This document shows positions 38,304 to 44,038 of a stretch of DNA of 64,000 bases, piece after piece. Made by a program: the position numbers and the translations under genes. The stretch comes from Pedobacter cryophilus (GTDB taxonomy: Bacteria; Bacteroidota; Bacteroidia; Sphingobacteriales; Sphingobacteriaceae): contig NZ_SWBP01000003.1 in assembly GCF_005116455.1 (NCBI RefSeq), forward strand, positions 186,012 to 250,011, in the 5' to 3' direction. The notes below the pieces were generated by a model. The model ran no database searches. It worked only from the letters and a program-made list of their open reading frames with translations, and was not told where the DNA came from. Every line of letters starts with the position of its first letter. Position 1 is the first letter of the stretch.

Positions 38304-39032
38304 ATGAAAAACATTCTATTTGTAATTGTAGCTTTTTTATCGCTATCCGTAAATGCTCAGGATATGCAGAAATATTTAACCGATACTAGACTATTGATTA
38401 AAGAGGGAAAAAATGGAGAAGCATTAGAGCGTTGTATATGGTTTCATCATCACGCTTTAGAAAAAGAGAAAGAAATGACTGGAGTTAGGTTATCTTTTGC
38501 ATTATCTGACTGGAAGAAACTAGGTGAACAATACCCTCCTGCATTAGATTCTTTAAAACAAATAAGAGATCAAAAAACAAAACGATTACTAAATGGCGAA
38601 AAGTCAACAAGCTTATTTCAAGACGTTTCGGGTATTAACAGAACTTTAGATGAAAGCGATAAAACTATCGAACTCTTTAAAACCATACAAGCCACACAAC
38701 CAAAATTTGCAAAACTTTGCTGGTTATTTGTAAAAGACAAATTATTTCAAGCTAAATCATACGATATAATTAATGAATATATTGGAAACCCAGTTCGAGA
38801 ATTTAGTGTAATAAAAGAACGCTATGAACTCAATATTAAAATGCGAGAAAAAATATCTGTAGGGAAAGAGCATCTAAAAGCTTACCATGAAAACAGCTTT
38901 GTAGAAAAAAGCATGGAGTTAATTGAATTTGCCGTAGCCATGAATGATTCAAAAACAGCTAAAGAAATTAAAAAGATGGCTTTAAATGTGATTGATGATT
39001 ATCGTTTGAAAAATGCTTTAACTTCTAAATAA
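38304..39032 (+). CDS. Exported helical protein of unknown function
   Basis: A 242-residue protein with a signal peptide (MKNILFVIVAFLSLSVNAQ) and a mostly alpha-helical mature part, starting with LTDTRLLIKEGKNGEALERCIWFHHHALE, which resembles one degenerate TPR-like pair. No catalytic motif, lipobox or membrane helix is seen after the signal. I do not recognise the family. It stands alone between lysC and a convergent endonuclease-family gene. Confidence 0.7.
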   Translation: MKNILFVIVAFLSLSVNAQDMQKYLTDTRLLIKEGKNGEALERCIWFHHHALEKEKEMTGVRLSFALSDWKKLGEQYPPALDSLKQIRDQKTKRLLNGEKSTSLFQDVSGINRTLDESDKTIELFKTIQATQPKFAKLCWLFVKDKLFQAKSYDIINEYIGNPVREFSVIKERYELNIKMREKISVGKEHLKAYHENSFVEKSMELIEFAVAMNDSKTAKEIKKMALNVIDDYRLKNALTSK

Positions 39033-39050
39033 TCCACATAAACAATTCAT

Positions 39051-40109
39051 TTACTCCACTTTTATTCTTTGGCCAGCTGTTTCCTTAGCTTCGGTAATTA
39101 CTTCTTTATTTGGCGCTTCCTTTTTTTGAGTTTTCTTCAATTTTGGAGCGTAAATTAAATGGGTGTAAATTGGAAAATGATCTGACCCATTATATTTCAA
39201 TCTTTTCATGCTAATGAAACCAAAATCGGCAGAACAAAAAATATAGTCTAAAGGAAAGCGAATATACCAGTGATGAGCAGAAAAAGTACTGTAAAATCCT
39301 CTTCCCTTTCTAACGTCTAGCAAACCACTAGTTTTGGTTAACAATGAAGTAGTATTACTCCATGCCACATCGTTTAAATCGCCCATAACAATCGTGGGTA
39401 ATTTACATTGTTTCACTTTTAATGCAATAATAGCCAATTCTTTATCTTTAGCCGTTGAGGTTAAACTTTCACCAGGTACAGGCGGCTCAGGGTGTAATCC
39501 CCATATTTGGATGATACTTTCATCATGTAATATCACTTTACAACTAACAGAAGGAATATCATGTTTTACGATATAATTAATTTCTTTATCAATTAATTTA
39601 AACTTGCTGTAAAACAACATTCCATAAGTGTTTTCTTTAGGAACTTCGATGCTATGGGGATAATTTTCTTTTAAGCTTTTTACTGCATTTTGCCATTTTT
39701 CATCAGTTTCTAAAAGAAAAACTATATCGGGATTACTGACTGAAATCTGTTGTAATAATTTATTGTAAGCAGTATTATCTTGCAAAACATTTGCACTCAA
39801 TATTTTAATTTCTCTGTTAGCATTTCTTTTCTTTACTCGTTTTATTTCTTTAATACCGAAAATAGAATAGGGAATAATTTTGACCGTAAGATAAACCACA
39901 CATAAGGCATTTATACAAAAAGCAAAAATGTCAATTTCATTAAATAAAGCATAATAGATAATCCAAAGAAATACTATAATTACACAGATAATAAAGTTTT
40001 GAAAACGCGAATATTCTAAAGATCTAAATATCCAGAAGTCACTTTTTACTATTGGCAATAAAACAAAAAGAATGCATAAATAAGTGAGAATAGAAAGTGC
40101 AATTAACAT
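39051..40109 (-). CDS. Membrane-anchored endonuclease/exonuclease/phosphatase-family protein
   Basis: The 352-residue protein has about three N-terminal membrane helices (residues 1-85) and a periplasmic EEP domain: ILSANVLQDN, FLLETDEKW (catalytic Glu), VMGDLNDVAWS and a final GSDHFPIYTHLIY with the catalytic Asp-His. This layout is common in Bacteroidota and substrates range from nucleic acids to lipids and phosphoinositides. A basic, low-complexity tail (KLKKTQKKEAPNKE) closes it. Substrate unknown. Confidence 0.87.
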   Translation of the reverse strand: MLIALSILTYLCILFVLLPIVKSDFWIFRSLEYSRFQNFIICVIIVFLWIIYYALFNEIDIFAFCINALCVVYLTVKIIPYSIFGIKEIKRVKKRNANREIKILSANVLQDNTAYNKLLQQISVSNPDIVFLLETDEKWQNAVKSLKENYPHSIEVPKENTYGMLFYSKFKLIDKEINYIVKHDIPSVSCKVILHDESIIQIWGLHPEPPVPGESLTSTAKDKELAIIALKVKQCKLPTIVMGDLNDVAWSNTTSLLTKTSGLLDVRKGRGFYSTFSAHHWYIRFPLDYIFCSADFGFISMKRLKYNGSDHFPIYTHLIYAPKLKKTQKKEAPNKEVITEAKETAGQRIKVE

Positions 40110-40214: not shown

Positions 40215-41195
40215 CTACTTCTGCTTAACCATTACCCCATTTAATAATAAAGTAGAACCTGCATTGGCTTCAATATTATAAACTTTTTGGCTACCTTCTG
40301 TAAATTCCTTTTGCAGCAATACTTTAAATTCTTCTAGCTTTTGGGTAGCATCGTTAATACAAAAAACTTTTTCGCCTAAAGTTATTTTTCCTATTTCTTT
40401 ATGACCTAAATGAGTTAGCATAGGGTGATTTGGCGTAGCTTTTACCACCTTACTTTGTAAATAAATTTGATTGCCTTCTATCCTATCTTTAATTAAAACC
40501 AGCTGTGTAACCGCATAGTTTTTTGCTTCATGTATTTTTAATTCCTTAACTTTTACCAAAGTAGCTTCCTGAGTATTTGGATCAACAGAAATTACTTCAT
40601 CTCCAGCTTTAATATCTTTCAAAAACTTAGATTCGCCATTTTTCATGCTCACTAACTGGTCTCCTGGAAAACAGATATCATTTCCATAAGTAGCATGTTC
40701 ATCTTTAATTTCTTTGCCTCCGTTAATGTTCTTAAACTGCTGAAAAGAAAGCTCTCGTGATAACACATAAGAAAGTTTTAAAATAAAGTTTTGCTCTACC
40801 TTATCTACCGCATGAATGTCTTCAAAATATTTCTCCCAAACTTTACCATCAGCAGTAAAATTGGGAACTAATACCTGATAAGTTTTTGACTTTTCATTGG
40901 TATAAAAAACCATCAAACCCAATTCTTGCATCCCTTCTTTAGCAACCAGTTTATATAAGTCTATTCGCTTTTTATTGCCATCATCTCCGGTGATGAAAAC
41001 TGGTTTTTTACCTTCATAACGATCTAATATATAAGTATTTTCAAATTTCACATAAGTATCATTATCCAAACTAGCTATGGTAAAGGTTTTGGCTTTTTGA
41101 TATTCATCAATAGTTAAAGGTCTTGGATTAACAATTTGAGCAGCAACCCTAAAAGAGATAAATACAATGAAAATCAGACTAAAAAAACGTATCAT
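40215..41195 (-). CDS. Secreted protein with C-terminal Hint (hedgehog/intein) domain
   Basis: The 326-residue protein has a signal peptide (to about residue 19) and a 155-residue N-terminal domain of unknown type. A Hint domain then starts at Cys175: CFPGDQLVSMKNGESKFLKD and AGDEVISVD (block A), KATPNHPML (block B, T-x-N-H), GEKVFCIND and VYNIEANAGSTLLLNGVMV (blocks F-G). The C-terminus ends VMVKQK, without the His-Asn needed for Asn cyclisation and splicing. Cleavage at Cys175 by N-S acyl shift is therefore possible but protein splicing is not. It is the last gene of an operon with two Tat-exported enzymes. Confidence 0.85.
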   Translation of the reverse strand: MIRFFSLIFIVFISFRVAAQIVNPRPLTIDEYQKAKTFTIASLDNDTYVKFENTYILDRYEGKKPVFITGDDGNKKRIDLYKLVAKEGMQELGLMVFYTNEKSKTYQVLVPNFTADGKVWEKYFEDIHAVDKVEQNFILKLSYVLSRELSFQQFKNINGGKEIKDEHATYGNDICFPGDQLVSMKNGESKFLKDIKAGDEVISVDPNTQEATLVKVKELKIHEAKNYAVTQLVLIKDRIEGNQIYLQSKVVKATPNHPMLTHLGHKEIGKITLGEKVFCINDATQKLEEFKVLLQKEFTEGSQKVYNIEANAGSTLLLNGVMVKQK

Positions 41196-41222: not shown

Positions 41223-42398
41223 TTAAGAAATTTGTTTAAAAGCTTCAGCAAAAAGCTGCATTTCTGGTAAGGTTCCAATACTTACTCGGCAATAATGCTG
41301 CTTATTAAATTCCCAATTTCTAATTCCCACTCCTCTTTTTCTCATTTCAGAAACAAACTTATCACCATCCATTTTAATTGGAAACATCACAAAATTAGCA
41401 AACGAAGGAATGTAGGTATAACCCTCTTCTTTTAGGGTTTTATAAAGGAAATCTTTAGAAACTTGTGTCTTCTTTTTGGTATCGTCTAAAAACTCACGGT
41501 CTTGATGAGAAGCAATAGCTGCCATTAAAGAAGTTGCCGAAATAGACATGGCGCCATTGGTATAAGCGTCTAAAGTTTTAACCATTTCTGCTTGCGCAAT
41601 GGCATAGCCAACTCTTAAGCCAGCAAAACCGTAAAGTTTAGAAAATGTACGAGCCACAATCACATTTTGACCTTTTTTAACTGCCGAAAATAAGGTAACA
41701 GATTGTGGATCATCCAAATAATCTATATAAGCTTCATCAATAAAAACAGGAACTTTTGCAGAAACTCTTTCTACAAATGCTTTCAATTTAGCAGTATCCA
41801 CCACGGTGGCTGTTGGGTTATTAGGATTACAGATGTAGACCAATTTAGTATCGGTATTGATCTTTTTTTCCATCCCATCTAAATCTAATTTAAATTCGGC
41901 CGTTAACGGAACAGCAATAATTTGCGCTCCAAAACCTTCCGCTGTTGAAGGTAAATCATCGTAACTGGGGTCAGAAGTGATAATGTTACCTCCTTTTTTG
42001 GTGAAATGAATGGCTGCCGCTTTTAAAATTGGACTTGAGCCAGCATCTAACATAATTTGCTCGGGCTTAACCCCTTCAAAAACAGCAATTTTATTAACCA
42101 ATTCGCCAAAGTGGGCAAATGGGTATTGGTAGCTTTTATCAACAGCATCAAGAATGGCTTTTTTGGCTTTCGCCGAAGGTCCAAATGGGTTTTCATTGGC
42201 TAACAAACGGGCTTTAATTTCATTAGGAAAAGCCTGCGCTGCCGATTGATCGGATTCAAAAAATACTCGCTTTACCGAAGATTTAATTGCCTTAGTTTTA
42301 GCAATTGCCGAAGTAAATGTTCCACTAAAAAAAGTGATTCCTGCTGCCATAAACGCACTAGATCTAATCCAGCTACGTCTGTTCATAGAATTTGCCAT
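41223..42398 (-). CDS. Tat-exported histidinol-phosphate-aminotransferase-like PLP enzyme
   Basis: The 391-residue protein starts with MANSMNRRSWIRSSAFMAAG, a twin-arginine signal, then a fold-type I aminotransferase with ANENPFGPS, DAGSSPILK, CNPNNPTATV, IDEAYIDY and the PLP lysine in ARTFSKLYGFAGLRVGYA. These motifs place it with HisC-like enzymes. Export by Tat fits a protein that must load PLP in the cytoplasm. A periplasmic location makes histidine biosynthesis unlikely; it may act on an extracellular or envelope amino compound together with the oxidase upstream (gap 53 bp). Confidence 0.87.
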   Translation of the reverse strand: MANSMNRRSWIRSSAFMAAGITFFSGTFTSAIAKTKAIKSSVKRVFFESDQSAAQAFPNEIKARLLANENPFGPSAKAKKAILDAVDKSYQYPFAHFGELVNKIAVFEGVKPEQIMLDAGSSPILKAAAIHFTKKGGNIITSDPSYDDLPSTAEGFGAQIIAVPLTAEFKLDLDGMEKKINTDTKLVYICNPNNPTATVVDTAKLKAFVERVSAKVPVFIDEAYIDYLDDPQSVTLFSAVKKGQNVIVARTFSKLYGFAGLRVGYAIAQAEMVKTLDAYTNGAMSISATSLMAAIASHQDREFLDDTKKKTQVSKDFLYKTLKEEGYTYIPSFANFVMFPIKMDGDKFVSEMRKRGVGIRNWEFNKQHYCRVSIGTLPEMQLFAEAFKQIS

Positions 42399-42451: not shown

Positions 42452-44038
42452 CTATTTATCAACTTTTTTATATTCTCCCCGCTGCTCGCTCAACCTATTA
42501 TTTACTTCTGTAACCACACTCCTAGCCGATTCAAATGCACCAGCCATCCAAGCGTTTAAATAAGTCATGTGTTCGCCAGCAAAATAAACCTGCTTATCTG
42601 GTTTTAATAATGCTTTATACATACTTTCTCTTGTTTCTGAGGTGTATAAAGCCCATCCGCCTAAACTACAAGGCGTTTTATGCCAGCTTACCGAAAAAGA
42701 TTTTTCAAACTCTTTAAGATATTGAGGATGAATTAAAGCTCCTTTTTCTAAAGCCAATTTTTCACGATCTATTAAAGAAAGATTACCTGTTTTTATCGCC
42801 TTATCATTAAAATTATAATAACCTAACAACACCCCTTTATTAGACTGATAATCATTAGAAGGATAAAATATTTGAGTTAAATCATTATTAGTATGAGTAA
42901 TACCACCATAAATTTGTTCGTCTTCTTCCCAAAAGCGGCGTTTAAATTGCAAGCCTATTTTTCCGGTGGCTATGTAAGATGCATAATCTATTGCCCTACT
43001 TACATCAGAAGAAAAATTATGGTTTAAATTGCTCAATACCGTTAAGGGGATGGTGCAAATACAAATATCTGCTGATGCTTCTTGTTTTCCTGTTGTATCT
43101 GTATAACTTACTTTTACACCTGCGTCTGTATTGATAATTGAGGTCACTTCTGCTCCTTTTTTGATGAGCGTACCTACCTTTTTCTCTAATGCGGTTGCAA
43201 TTTTATCCATACCTCCTACCGCCTGAAACATGGTCATTTGCAGTTCATAAGTATATTCGGCCACGTTATAAAAATCAGGGTCGGTTAAACCGGAAGAAAT
43301 TAAATCGGCCAAACGATGAGCTTCGGCAACTTTACCAGCTTGATTGCCGGTAGATGGGGCAACCGTATATCCTCTTCTTGCTGACGCTTTATATAGGTTA
43401 TCAATATCCAAACCTCCTTCGGCTCGTAAATATTCTAACACTTTCTCAATATCATCTTTACTTAAAGCCAAATCAAGCTTATCCTGACTGATAGATTTAT
43501 GCAGCAATTCGCTCATATAACCTCTCATATCATTATGCACTTCCCTCACTTTTATTTTTTGATTAGAAAGCGGTCCTTTTCCTTCACTAAAATAATAGGC
43601 ACCTTCATTCACATTATTATAAATTTGAAGTGGGACACCCAATTCTTTACAATAATGTAATGTTAATTCATGATGATGTGGAATACGACTTGGCCCAGCG
43701 TTAAAATACTGTCCGTCGTCTAATTGAGCTGTTTGTTTTGGTAAACCTGTTTCTGTATTGTGACTCCCTTTTCTCACGCTCCAACATCTGCCGCCCACAC
43801 GGTCTCTGGCTTCTAAAATGGTACAGCTATAACCTAACTTTGTTAATTCGTAGGCAGTAGTCATGCCGCATAAGCCACCGCCTAAAATGAGTACTTTTTT
43901 ACCTTTGCCATCTCCTTGAGGGTTAAAAGCATAAGATGGAGCCGCTTTTAACATTCCCAATGCGAGTAAAGCTGGGTAAGCTCCACCAGCAAGCAAGCTG
44001 CTTTTGGTTAAAAAATCTCTTCTACTTAAAGATTTCAA
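42452..44038 (-). CDS. Tat-exported flavin amine oxidase
   Basis: The 528-residue protein starts at a TTG codon (no in-frame ATG nearby) with KSLSRRDFLTKSSLLAGG, a Tat signal. The FAD site VLILGGGLCGMTTAYEL...EARDRVGGRCW and the C-terminal VYFAGEHMTYLNAWMAGAFESARS define the monoamine/L-amino-acid oxidase family. It would oxidatively deaminate an amine or amino acid and give H2O2 in the periplasm. It leads the operon with the aminotransferase and the Hint protein; all three are exported. Confidence 0.88.
   Translation of the reverse strand: MKSLSRRDFLTKSSLLAGGAYPALLALGMLKAAPSYAFNPQGDGKGKKVLILGGGLCGMTTAYELTKLGYSCTILEARDRVGGRCWSVRKGSHNTETGLPKQTAQLDDGQYFNAGPSRIPHHHELTLHYCKELGVPLQIYNNVNEGAYYFSEGKGPLSNQKIKVREVHNDMRGYMSELLHKSISQDKLDLALSKDDIEKVLEYLRAEGGLDIDNLYKASARRGYTVAPSTGNQAGKVAEAHRLADLISSGLTDPDFYNVAEYTYELQMTMFQAVGGMDKIATALEKKVGTLIKKGAEVTSIINTDAGVKVSYTDTTGKQEASADICICTIPLTVLSNLNHNFSSDVSRAIDYASYIATGKIGLQFKRRFWEEDEQIYGGITHTNNDLTQIFYPSNDYQSNKGVLLGYYNFNDKAIKTGNLSLIDREKLALEKGALIHPQYLKEFEKSFSVSWHKTPCSLGGWALYTSETRESMYKALLKPDKQVYFAGEHMTYLNAWMAGAFESARSVVTEVNNRLSEQRGEYKKVDK

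What the first reader, a model, noticed from the sequence alone, without database searches (positions are those of the whole stretch)
40215..41195. Secreted Hint-domain protein that can cleave but not splice
The Hint domain begins at Cys175 and keeps the T-x-N-H block, but the chain ends VMVKQK without His-Asn or a C-extein. It resembles hedgehog-like or BIL-type autoprocessing: thioester formation and release or transfer of the N-terminal 155-residue domain to a nucleophile. The N-terminal domain is unrecognised.
Basis: partly seen in the sequence, partly recalled or inferred. Interest (0 to 1): 0.7.

Follow-up and report, generated by a model that had tools for sequence, protein, structure and literature searches.

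The report
Secreted Lys-ended Hint protein with oxidase-aminotransferase operon
A secreted bacterial protein carries a hedgehog/intein-like self-processing domain that almost always ends in the same lysine and sits in an operon with two exported amino-acid enzymes, which suggests that it may attach its own front half to a lysine rather than simply cut itself.

Summary
Window 40215-41195 (minus strand) encodes a 326-aa secreted protein: an unrecognised N-domain, then a Hint domain from Cys175 with a TPNH block, ending VMVKQK. The predicted Hint matches hedgehog 1at0 (Z 20.4, rmsd 1.6 A, 137 residues). New points: (1) It ends a cassette, Tat L-amino-acid-oxidase-like enzyme, Tat HisC-like aminotransferase, Hint protein, found across Bacteroidota (oxidase beside 123 of 149 loci, cassette-type aminotransferase beside 132). 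(2) Structure alignment puts residue 325 at the intein terminal-Asn position and Lys326 at the +1 acceptor position: a one-residue "C-extein", and the conserved one. Lys326 is present in 135 of 136 Cys175-bearing loci (the exception is frameshifted); 325 varies. (3) Of 15 loci without the N-domain, 13 have neither Cys175 nor Lys326; the other two keep both. Best reading: Cys175 thioester, then acyl transfer to an amine, most likely Lys326, as reported for Tetrahymena BIL2. No chemistry was shown. "Cannot splice" is partly right. Not a hedgehog, an intein or a pretoxin Hint. New variant of a known kind; substrate and purpose open.

The parts
40215..41195 (-). Hint protein gene, 326 aa plus stop
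   Evidence: ORF; PF01079 above cut-off; 149-locus table
41136..41195 (-). signal peptide, about residues 1-20 (ends ..RVAAQ)
   Evidence: read by eye; A19-Q20 conserved; helix 2-16 in the model; no signal-peptide program was run
40674..41135 (-). N-domain, residues 21-174 (strands then two helices in the model), no known family found
40218..40673 (-). Hint domain, residues 175-326
   Evidence: hedgehog 1at0 Z 20.4, rmsd 1.6 A, 137 aligned; Mtu RecA 3ifj Z 19.4
40671..40673 (-). Cys175, candidate N-S acyl shift nucleophile
   Evidence: 136 of 149 loci
40530..40532 (-). His222, candidate base (130 of 136 Cys-bearing loci, 0 of 13 Cys-less)
   Evidence: role inferred only
40425..40436 (-). T254-P-N-H257 block
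   Evidence: T254 and H257 in 136 of 136 Cys-bearing loci
40221..40223 (-). Gln325, at the position of the intein terminal residue (Asn)
   Evidence: varies outside the main clade
40218..40220 (-). Lys326, at the +1 acceptor position, last residue
41223..42398 (-). HisC-like PLP aminotransferase with twin-arginine start (27 bp upstream of the Hint gene); PLP lysine K254 at 41637-41639
42452..44038 (-). Flavin L-amino-acid-oxidase-like enzyme with twin-arginine start (53 bp upstream of the aminotransferase)

Best explanation
A secreted self-processing protein. Step 1 (inferred from fold and residues): outside the cytoplasm, Cys175 of the Hint domain takes over the Ile174 carbonyl by an N-S acyl shift, helped by Thr254 and His257, giving a thioester-linked N-domain. 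Step 2 (inferred): the thioester is taken by an amine. The best candidate is the protein's own Lys326, which sits where inteins hold their +1 Cys/Ser/Thr; the product would be the N-domain joined by an isopeptide bond to the C-terminal lysine, with Cys175 freed as a new N-terminus. Step 3 (open): whether the 325-326 bond then breaks to give N-domain-lysine. The exported aminotransferase (more constant partner) and oxidase (frequent partner) would act in the same compartment, on the product or on a small amine that enters the reaction. Shown by computation: fold, residue positions, conservation, cassette, joint absence. Not shown: any cleavage, any bond to lysine, any substrate.
For: Register: one search aligns 175-326 to hedgehog and inteins, with 325 ending on RecA 440, GyrA 198 and gp41-1 125, and 326 on Ssp DnaB 155, GyrA 199 (4oz6), Npu DnaE 138, VMA 738 (1jva) and BIL2 144; the sequence profile runs without gap to the penultimate residue of RecA. 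Conservation: Lys326 in 135 of 136 Cys-bearing loci while 324 and 325 vary. On a 70-row tree built without columns 175 and 323-326, position 326 needs 2 changes outside the Cys-less subtrees (tree length 32.5), which must lie at their borders since every Cys-bearing row has Lys; 325 needs 14 and 324 needs 12. Joint absence: 0 of 13 Cys-less proteins have Lys326; two N-domain-less proteins, L215 and L216, keep both, so Lys goes with Cys rather than with the N-domain. Precedent: Tetrahymena BIL2 is reported to form a bond to a lysine epsilon-amine without ATP (PMC8616854, passages of section 8). Cassette: oxidase beside 123 of 149 loci, cassette-type aminotransferase beside 132; PLP lysine in 144 of 144 aminotransferases aligned, paralogues included.
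Against: My calls show no bacterial Hint for which a +1 lysine has been demonstrated as nucleophile. Lys326 could be a charge or anchoring residue, or a C-terminal tag. The joint loss is two events at most; one event is not rejected (p-AU 0.064) and two pairs cannot reach significance. All 13 Cys-less proteins also lack the N-domain and an adjacent oxidase, and 12 of them the cassette aminotransferase; one, L254, has no counterpart to the first part of the Hint domain, so its Cys column means little. The scan selected on a Cys-bearing or a T-P-N-H peptide. Residue 325 is of many kinds, so Asn-type release is not general. Nine genomes with intact N-domain, Cys and Lys have no cassette-type oxidase anywhere (0 of 9, against 7 of 7 control genomes), so the oxidase is not required.
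Confidence: 0.42

Rival explanations
1. Hedgehog-like or BIL-like N-terminal cleavage: the Cys175 thioester is resolved by water or an external small nucleophile; Lys326 only stabilises the active site or holds the C-terminus next to Cys175.
For: Same fold and residues; Hh uses only the first acyl shift, and BIL domains give mainly cleaved products (PMC7664689 passages). Explains the joint absence of Cys and Lys equally well. His222 in 130 of 136 could be a base, as His at Hh position 303 can be (PMC9163320 passages; that the two positions correspond was not established).
Against: A merely charged residue might be expected to be Arg at times; Arg at 326 is seen only in Cys-less proteins (4 of 13, none of 136).
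Confidence: 0.36
2. No self-processing: the Hint fold is a binding or chaperone module for the exported enzymes and Cys175 is a metal, redox or structural residue (in the main clade it could pair with Cys279, the window protein's only other cysteine).
For: A clade keeps a secreted Hint fold of about 190-200 aa with neither Cys nor Lys, so the fold can be kept without this chemistry; Cys279 is in 74 of 75 main-clade loci; an amino acid oxidase would make peroxide (general knowledge).
Against: Thr254 and His257 stay in 136 of 136 Cys-bearing loci; Cys279 is missing in 59 of 61 Cys-bearing loci outside the main clade, and 49 of these 61 have the oxidase.
Confidence: 0.14
3. Ordinary amino-acid catabolism operon with an unrelated secreted Hint protein beside it by accident.
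For: The two enzymes look like a generic L-amino acid oxidase and aminotransferase.
Against: Adjacency in most of 149 loci with two different gene orders; broken Hint and aminotransferase pieces lie together in G412.
Confidence: 0.06

Closest known systems
Hedgehog C-terminal (Hog/Hint) domain, PF01079, 1at0
   Same: Only Pfam family above its cut-off and top structural match with its mutant 6tyy; starts C-F-P-G; TxxH block; no His-Asn; C-terminal to a compact secreted N-domain
   Different: No hedgehog signalling domain found; the chain stops where the Hint fold stops, so no sterol recognition region (its place is recalled); ends in a conserved Lys
Tetrahymena BUBL BIL2 domain (6tmm, 6y75)
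   Same: Hint fold with Cys1; N-terminal protein passed to a lysine amine without ATP according to PMC8616854 (passages); profile match E about 6e-7
   Different: There the lysine is in the following ubiquitin-like domain and a terminal Asn (N143) is present; here the lysine is the +1 residue itself, the N-domain has no Pfam match, and no reaction has been shown
Bacterial intein-like (BIL) domains, types A and B (2lwy)
   Same: Bacterial Hint domains said to lack the usual +1 nucleophile (PMC7664689 passages); structural Z 19.4; A-type ones can in some cases splice by another route (PMC5874633 passages)
   Different: Here one architecture and operon, no His-Asn, conserved Lys at +1
Secreted bacterial C-terminal Hint proteins noted by Burglin 2008 (PMC2362128, passages)
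   Same: Some have a signal peptide; C-terminal Hint unlike intein, Hog or BIL
   Different: Those listed are from myxobacteria and gammaproteobacteria with two conserved upstream cysteines; the window's N-domain has no cysteine

Membership tests
Hint (hedgehog/intein) fold superfamily | Hint fold with nucleophile at first residue and Thr-x-x-His block | tested here: met
Hedgehog protein | hedgehog N-terminal signalling domain | tested here: not met
   not among the six Pfam families listed at E <= 10; N-domain of the window has no Pfam hit at E <= 1
Hedgehog protein | sterol recognition region after the Hint part | tested here: not met
   chain ends at 326, aligned to Hh residue 401; place of the region recalled
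Intein (splicing) | terminal Asn (with penultimate His) and +1 Cys/Ser/Thr | tested here: not met
   Lys324-Gln325-Lys326 at these positions
Intein (splicing) | inserted inside a host protein whose homologues lack it | tested here: not met
   Hint is C-terminal in the 149 loci; among the matches listed for 399 family genomes the only N-domain piece without Hint belongs to a broken gene (G412)
BIL domain | self-cleavage at N- or C-terminus | not testable with these tools
   needs protein
BUBL-type Lys transfer | isopeptide bond to a lysine amine | not testable with these tools
   Lys326 position and conservation only
BUBL-type Lys transfer | ubiquitin-like N-terminal domain | tested here: inconclusive
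   no Pfam hit for the window's N-domain; the fold of the N-domain was not searched alone
Pretoxin Hint (PF07591) of polymorphic toxins | PF07591 above cut-off with a C-terminal toxin | tested here: not met
   24.6 bits against 27.7 and no residues after 326
L-amino acid oxidase (partner gene) | PF01593 and similarity to a characterised L-amino acid oxidase over its length | tested here: met
   (2jae, E 1e-99, residues 47-519); activity untested

The most novel reading that the evidence does not exclude
A secreted, ATP-free, ubiquitin-like conjugation system in Bacteroidota: the Hint domain hands its N-domain to the epsilon-amine of a lysine in the +1 seat (itself, or partner proteins mimicking it), and the co-exported PLP and, where present, FAD enzymes act on the resulting lysine-bearing conjugate, so that a protein tag and amino-acid chemistry form one pathway outside the cytoplasm.
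Probability: 0.12. Interest if true: 0.88.

Novelty: new variant of a known kind. Interest (0 to 1): 0.62.

Why it matters
Hint domains are textbook machines for cutting and joining proteins. Canonical splicing uses Cys, Ser or Thr as acceptor; some BIL domains are reported to ligate without one, and Tetrahymena BIL2 to use a lysine. A natural bacterial family with a fixed lysine in the acceptor seat, absent exactly where the catalytic cysteine is absent, is a direct test case for lysine as acceptor and might give a one-protein tool for isopeptide bonds. It also offers a concrete partner set (two exported amino-acid enzymes) for a class of secreted bacterial Hint proteins of open purpose.

Tried and rejected
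Considered and rejected or lowered. (a) Oxidase as the necessary enzyme on a lysine product. One search found no oxidase match (E <= 1e-30) in 18 genomes, nine L142-like and nine N-domain-less, but held no positive control. One search repeated it with seven control genomes at E <= 1e-20: 7 of 7 controls matched (49-100% identity); of the nine L142-like genomes eight had nothing and G1205 one partial 29% match elsewhere, so no cassette-type oxidase. Their nine loci (L142, L217, L230-L232, L250-L253) keep N-domain, Cys and Lys. (b) Gln325 as a substitute for terminal Asn: Gln in all 75 main-clade loci but D, E, N, T, V, K, R, A, G or P in nearly all other Cys-bearing loci. (c) Cys175-Cys279 disulfide switch: Cys279 is in 2 of 61 Cys-bearing loci outside the main clade. 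(d) A general lysine habit of Hint proteins ending HN-X-stop: a pattern search of 395 phylum genomes found one match, with Cys as X, and four matches of the reversed control; nothing learned. Relatives of the HN-K-ending L159 were not found in the 11 other genomes of its family except one weak Hint match. (e) Known fold for the N-domain: the PDB sequence search gave only a nanobody at E 0.011, Pfam nothing credible. The rows shown by the fold searches are taken up by Hint matches, so the N-domain's fold is untested, not new. (f) A designed TIM barrel (7mcd) matched by chance. (g) The aminotransferase 1.2-1.6 kb from 14 of the 15 N-domain-less Hint genes is another paralogue (73-82% identical to the far copy of L206, 38-42% to cassette ones), so the raw count of 146 of 149 falls to 132. 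The three loci without any are L228 and L236 (short contigs) and L248 (none in 13 kb). (h) Literature: eight searches on Hint domain with hedgehog, Bacteroidetes, autoprocessing, BIL, amino acid oxidase, isopeptide, Tetrahymena, genus names, aminotransferase and twin-arginine listed no paper on this cassette in the rows shown. I saw listings and abstract starts, and passages of PMC8616854, PMC7664689, PMC12487129, PMC9163320, PMC5874633, PMC2362128. The library lacks most subscription papers.

Limits. The 149 loci are the window, the 74, L143, L144, L236, L237 and one locus each for 70 of the 71 genomes hit (L140-L142 among them; G1139, a 2820-aa frame, left out; second hits in G1163, G1179, G1185 not used). 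Left out too: full-length homologues not, L128, L130, and Hint proteins with other front parts (L145, L159, L160). L222 (frameshifted) was dropped from the trees; the 70-row tree leaves out nine near-copies and all but six main-clade rows. L086 has its N-domain in another frame. The hits include Hint proteins of other kinds (4 of 15 and 12 of 22). Not every intein row could be checked for the terminal position, and a few end further on (such as 6zgq, 2jmz). Signal peptides were read by eye, Tat motifs by a simple pattern (137 of 144 aminotransferases, 117 of 121 oxidases).

Full report
What is there. The gene at 40215-41195 (minus strand) encodes 326 aa with an N-terminal signal sequence ending ..RVAAQ (read by eye), a 154-residue N-domain and a Hint domain from Cys175 to the last residue. 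PF01079 (hedgehog-type Hint) is over its curated cut-off; pretoxin Hint, Hint_2, Vint and Intein_splicing are below theirs. NCBIfam shows only sub-threshold intein models.

Fold. AlphaFold2 on a 48-sequence alignment gave mean pLDDT 82.5, pTM 0.50; the link between the domains (159-170) is poorly predicted. VIA-align over Foldseek's PDB candidates gives hedgehog 1at0 Z 20.4, rmsd 1.6, 137 aligned, BIL 2lwy Z 19.4, and inteins from 19.6 down to 14 in the 50 rows shown. In one search the aligned ends put residue 325 on RecA 440, gp41-1 125 and GyrA 198, and residue 326 on Ssp DnaB 155, GyrA 199 (4oz6), Npu DnaE 138, VMA 738 (1jva) and BIL2 144. That these are the terminal and +1 residues of those domains is recalled (for BIL2 partly shown by the entry title). 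Only range ends are printed, and a few rows end further on. The ungapped sequence alignment to RecA agrees.

Family and spread. One search found matches in 58 of 399 genomes of the window's family, in 6 of 25 genera, so it is patchy; in 5 of 60 relatives. A scan of species genomes returned 74 loci in Pedobacter, Mucilaginibacter, Hymenobacter, Pontibacter, Rufibacter, Adhaeribacter, Chryseolinea, Chitinophaga, Cnuella and others (the patterns were a Cys-bearing peptide and the T-P-N-H peptide, so this set leans towards conserved members). Profile searches hit 15 of 395 phylum genomes, 11 of them with all or nearly all of the protein, 22 of 395 class genomes with the Hint-only profile, including Hint proteins of other kinds, and 71 of 121 genomes of the family of G661. 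L095 is labelled Williamsia, probably a binning error (my guess).

Cassette. Among the window and the 74 loci, clustering of neighbour ORFs shows an aminotransferase family upstream in 74 of 75 and a flavin amine oxidase before it in 73 of 75; the next most frequent neighbour family is in 17. In the more distant group the order is aminotransferase-oxidase-Hint. The oxidase is closest to L-amino acid oxidase 2jae (E 1e-99; from Rhodococcus by recall); the aminotransferase to HisC-like enzymes, below the cut-off of all 25 NCBIfam models shown. A twin-arginine motif is near the start of 117 of 121 oxidases and 137 of 144 aminotransferases, and the PLP lysine is in 144 of 144 (the 144 include the paralogues named below). 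So all three products are predicted to be exported. Broken Hint and aminotransferase pieces lie together in G412, and only a Hint fragment was seen in G199.

Catalytic residues and Lys326. In 149 loci (recounted) Cys175 is present in 136; Thr254 and His257 in all 136; His222 in 130; Lys326 in 135, the exception being L222, whose frame is broken. The chain ends exactly at Lys326 in 121 of the 136 and runs on by one to four residues in 14. Residue 325 is Gln 77, Asp 36, Glu 9, and eight other residues in the remaining 13 readable ones; residue 324 also varies. C-terminal residues are often the loosest of a protein, so this is unusual.

Natural experiment. Fifteen proteins (L203-L216, L254) lack the N-domain; most are about 190-200 aa. 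Thirteen of them have neither Cys175 nor Lys326 (tails ANN, AQ, LDR, IEQ, FND, QDR, LGR); L215 and L216 keep both. L254 lacks a counterpart to the first part of the Hint domain, so the clean count is 12 of 12 plus one unclear. In a tree built without columns 175 and 323-326 the N-domain-less proteins form one clade (100/99), with L215/L216 joined to one of two Cys-less groups (97/93), which needs two losses of Cys and two of Lys. A single Cys-less clade is not rejected (p-AU 0.064), and two pairs cannot reach significance. At 326 parsimony needs 2 changes outside the Cys-less subtrees (length 32.5; these are the borders) and 3 inside them (length 5.8); at 325 the counts are 14 and 3, at 324 12 and 3. 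So the constraint on Lys326 goes with Cys175. The Cys-less proteins also lack the oxidase beside them and, except L206, the cassette aminotransferase, so other parts of the system went too.

Mechanism. Hedgehog uses only the N-S acyl shift, and BIL domains lack the +1 nucleophile and mostly cleave (passages of PMC7664689). BIL2 of Tetrahymena is reported to form an isopeptide bond to a lysine amine, without ATP, with the acceptor lysine in the next domain (passages of PMC8616854). The present family has a lysine in the +1 seat. The reading that uses every conserved part is a Cys175 thioester followed by aminolysis with Lys326 as acceptor; the close rival is hydrolysis or transfer to an external amine with Lys326 as helper. 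His222 might serve as base in the way that His at hedgehog 303 can (passages of PMC9163320), but that the positions correspond was not established.

What the enzymes do is open. A lysine attached by its side chain would offer a free alpha-amino acid end to an aminotransferase or oxidase. Two results speak against making this general: residue 325 is not of the Asn type in many members, so release of that end is not assured, and nine genomes with an otherwise intact protein have no cassette-type oxidase (0 of 9 against 7 of 7 controls).

Hint proteins with other front parts: L145 ends GAK; L159 (leucine-rich repeats by eye) ends VHNK and L160 ends VHNKSNQNK; L163, L164, L166 and L168 have VGTE, and L169 VGLN, at this place. 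So lysine at +1 also occurs with the normal His-Asn in two unrelated proteins; the numbers are too small to say more.

Verdict. Real and conserved; chemistry unproven; new variant of a known kind.

Noticed in passing
L203-L214, L254: Secreted Hint-fold proteins, most about 190-200 aa, without N-domain, catalytic Cys and terminal Lys but still recognisable: a possible non-catalytic Hint with a new role.
   Followed up: partly
L159 / L238:6393-8081 (-): Secreted protein (about 560 aa, leucine-rich repeats by eye) whose C-terminal Hint ends His-Asn-Lys at the stop codon, a splicing-type end with a single lysine as C-extein.
   Followed up: partly
L239:2875-7026 (+): Large protein (about 1380 aa) ending with a Hint domain and VHNKSNQNK.
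   Followed up: no
L145:4783-6480 (+): Secreted protein of about 565 aa with unrelated front part and a Hint domain ending LLVGAK.
   Followed up: no
L120-L124: HisC-like aminotransferase relatives with twin-arginine start (42-43% identical) without Hint or oxidase seen in the 4-kb loci; in all five an auxin-efflux-carrier-like membrane protein lies next to it (name by eye).
   Followed up: partly
L163, L164, L166, L168, L169: Other proteins with a C-terminal Hint whose end reads VGTE or VGLN, without His-Asn or Lys there.
   Followed up: no
window 38304-39032 (+) and 39051-40109 (-): A small protein with signal-like start and no Pfam match, and an endonuclease/exonuclease/phosphatase-fold protein; neither is among the conserved neighbours of the cassette.
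   Followed up: no
L146 (G412), L147 (G199), L222: Broken cassette or Hint genes; described only.
   Followed up: partly
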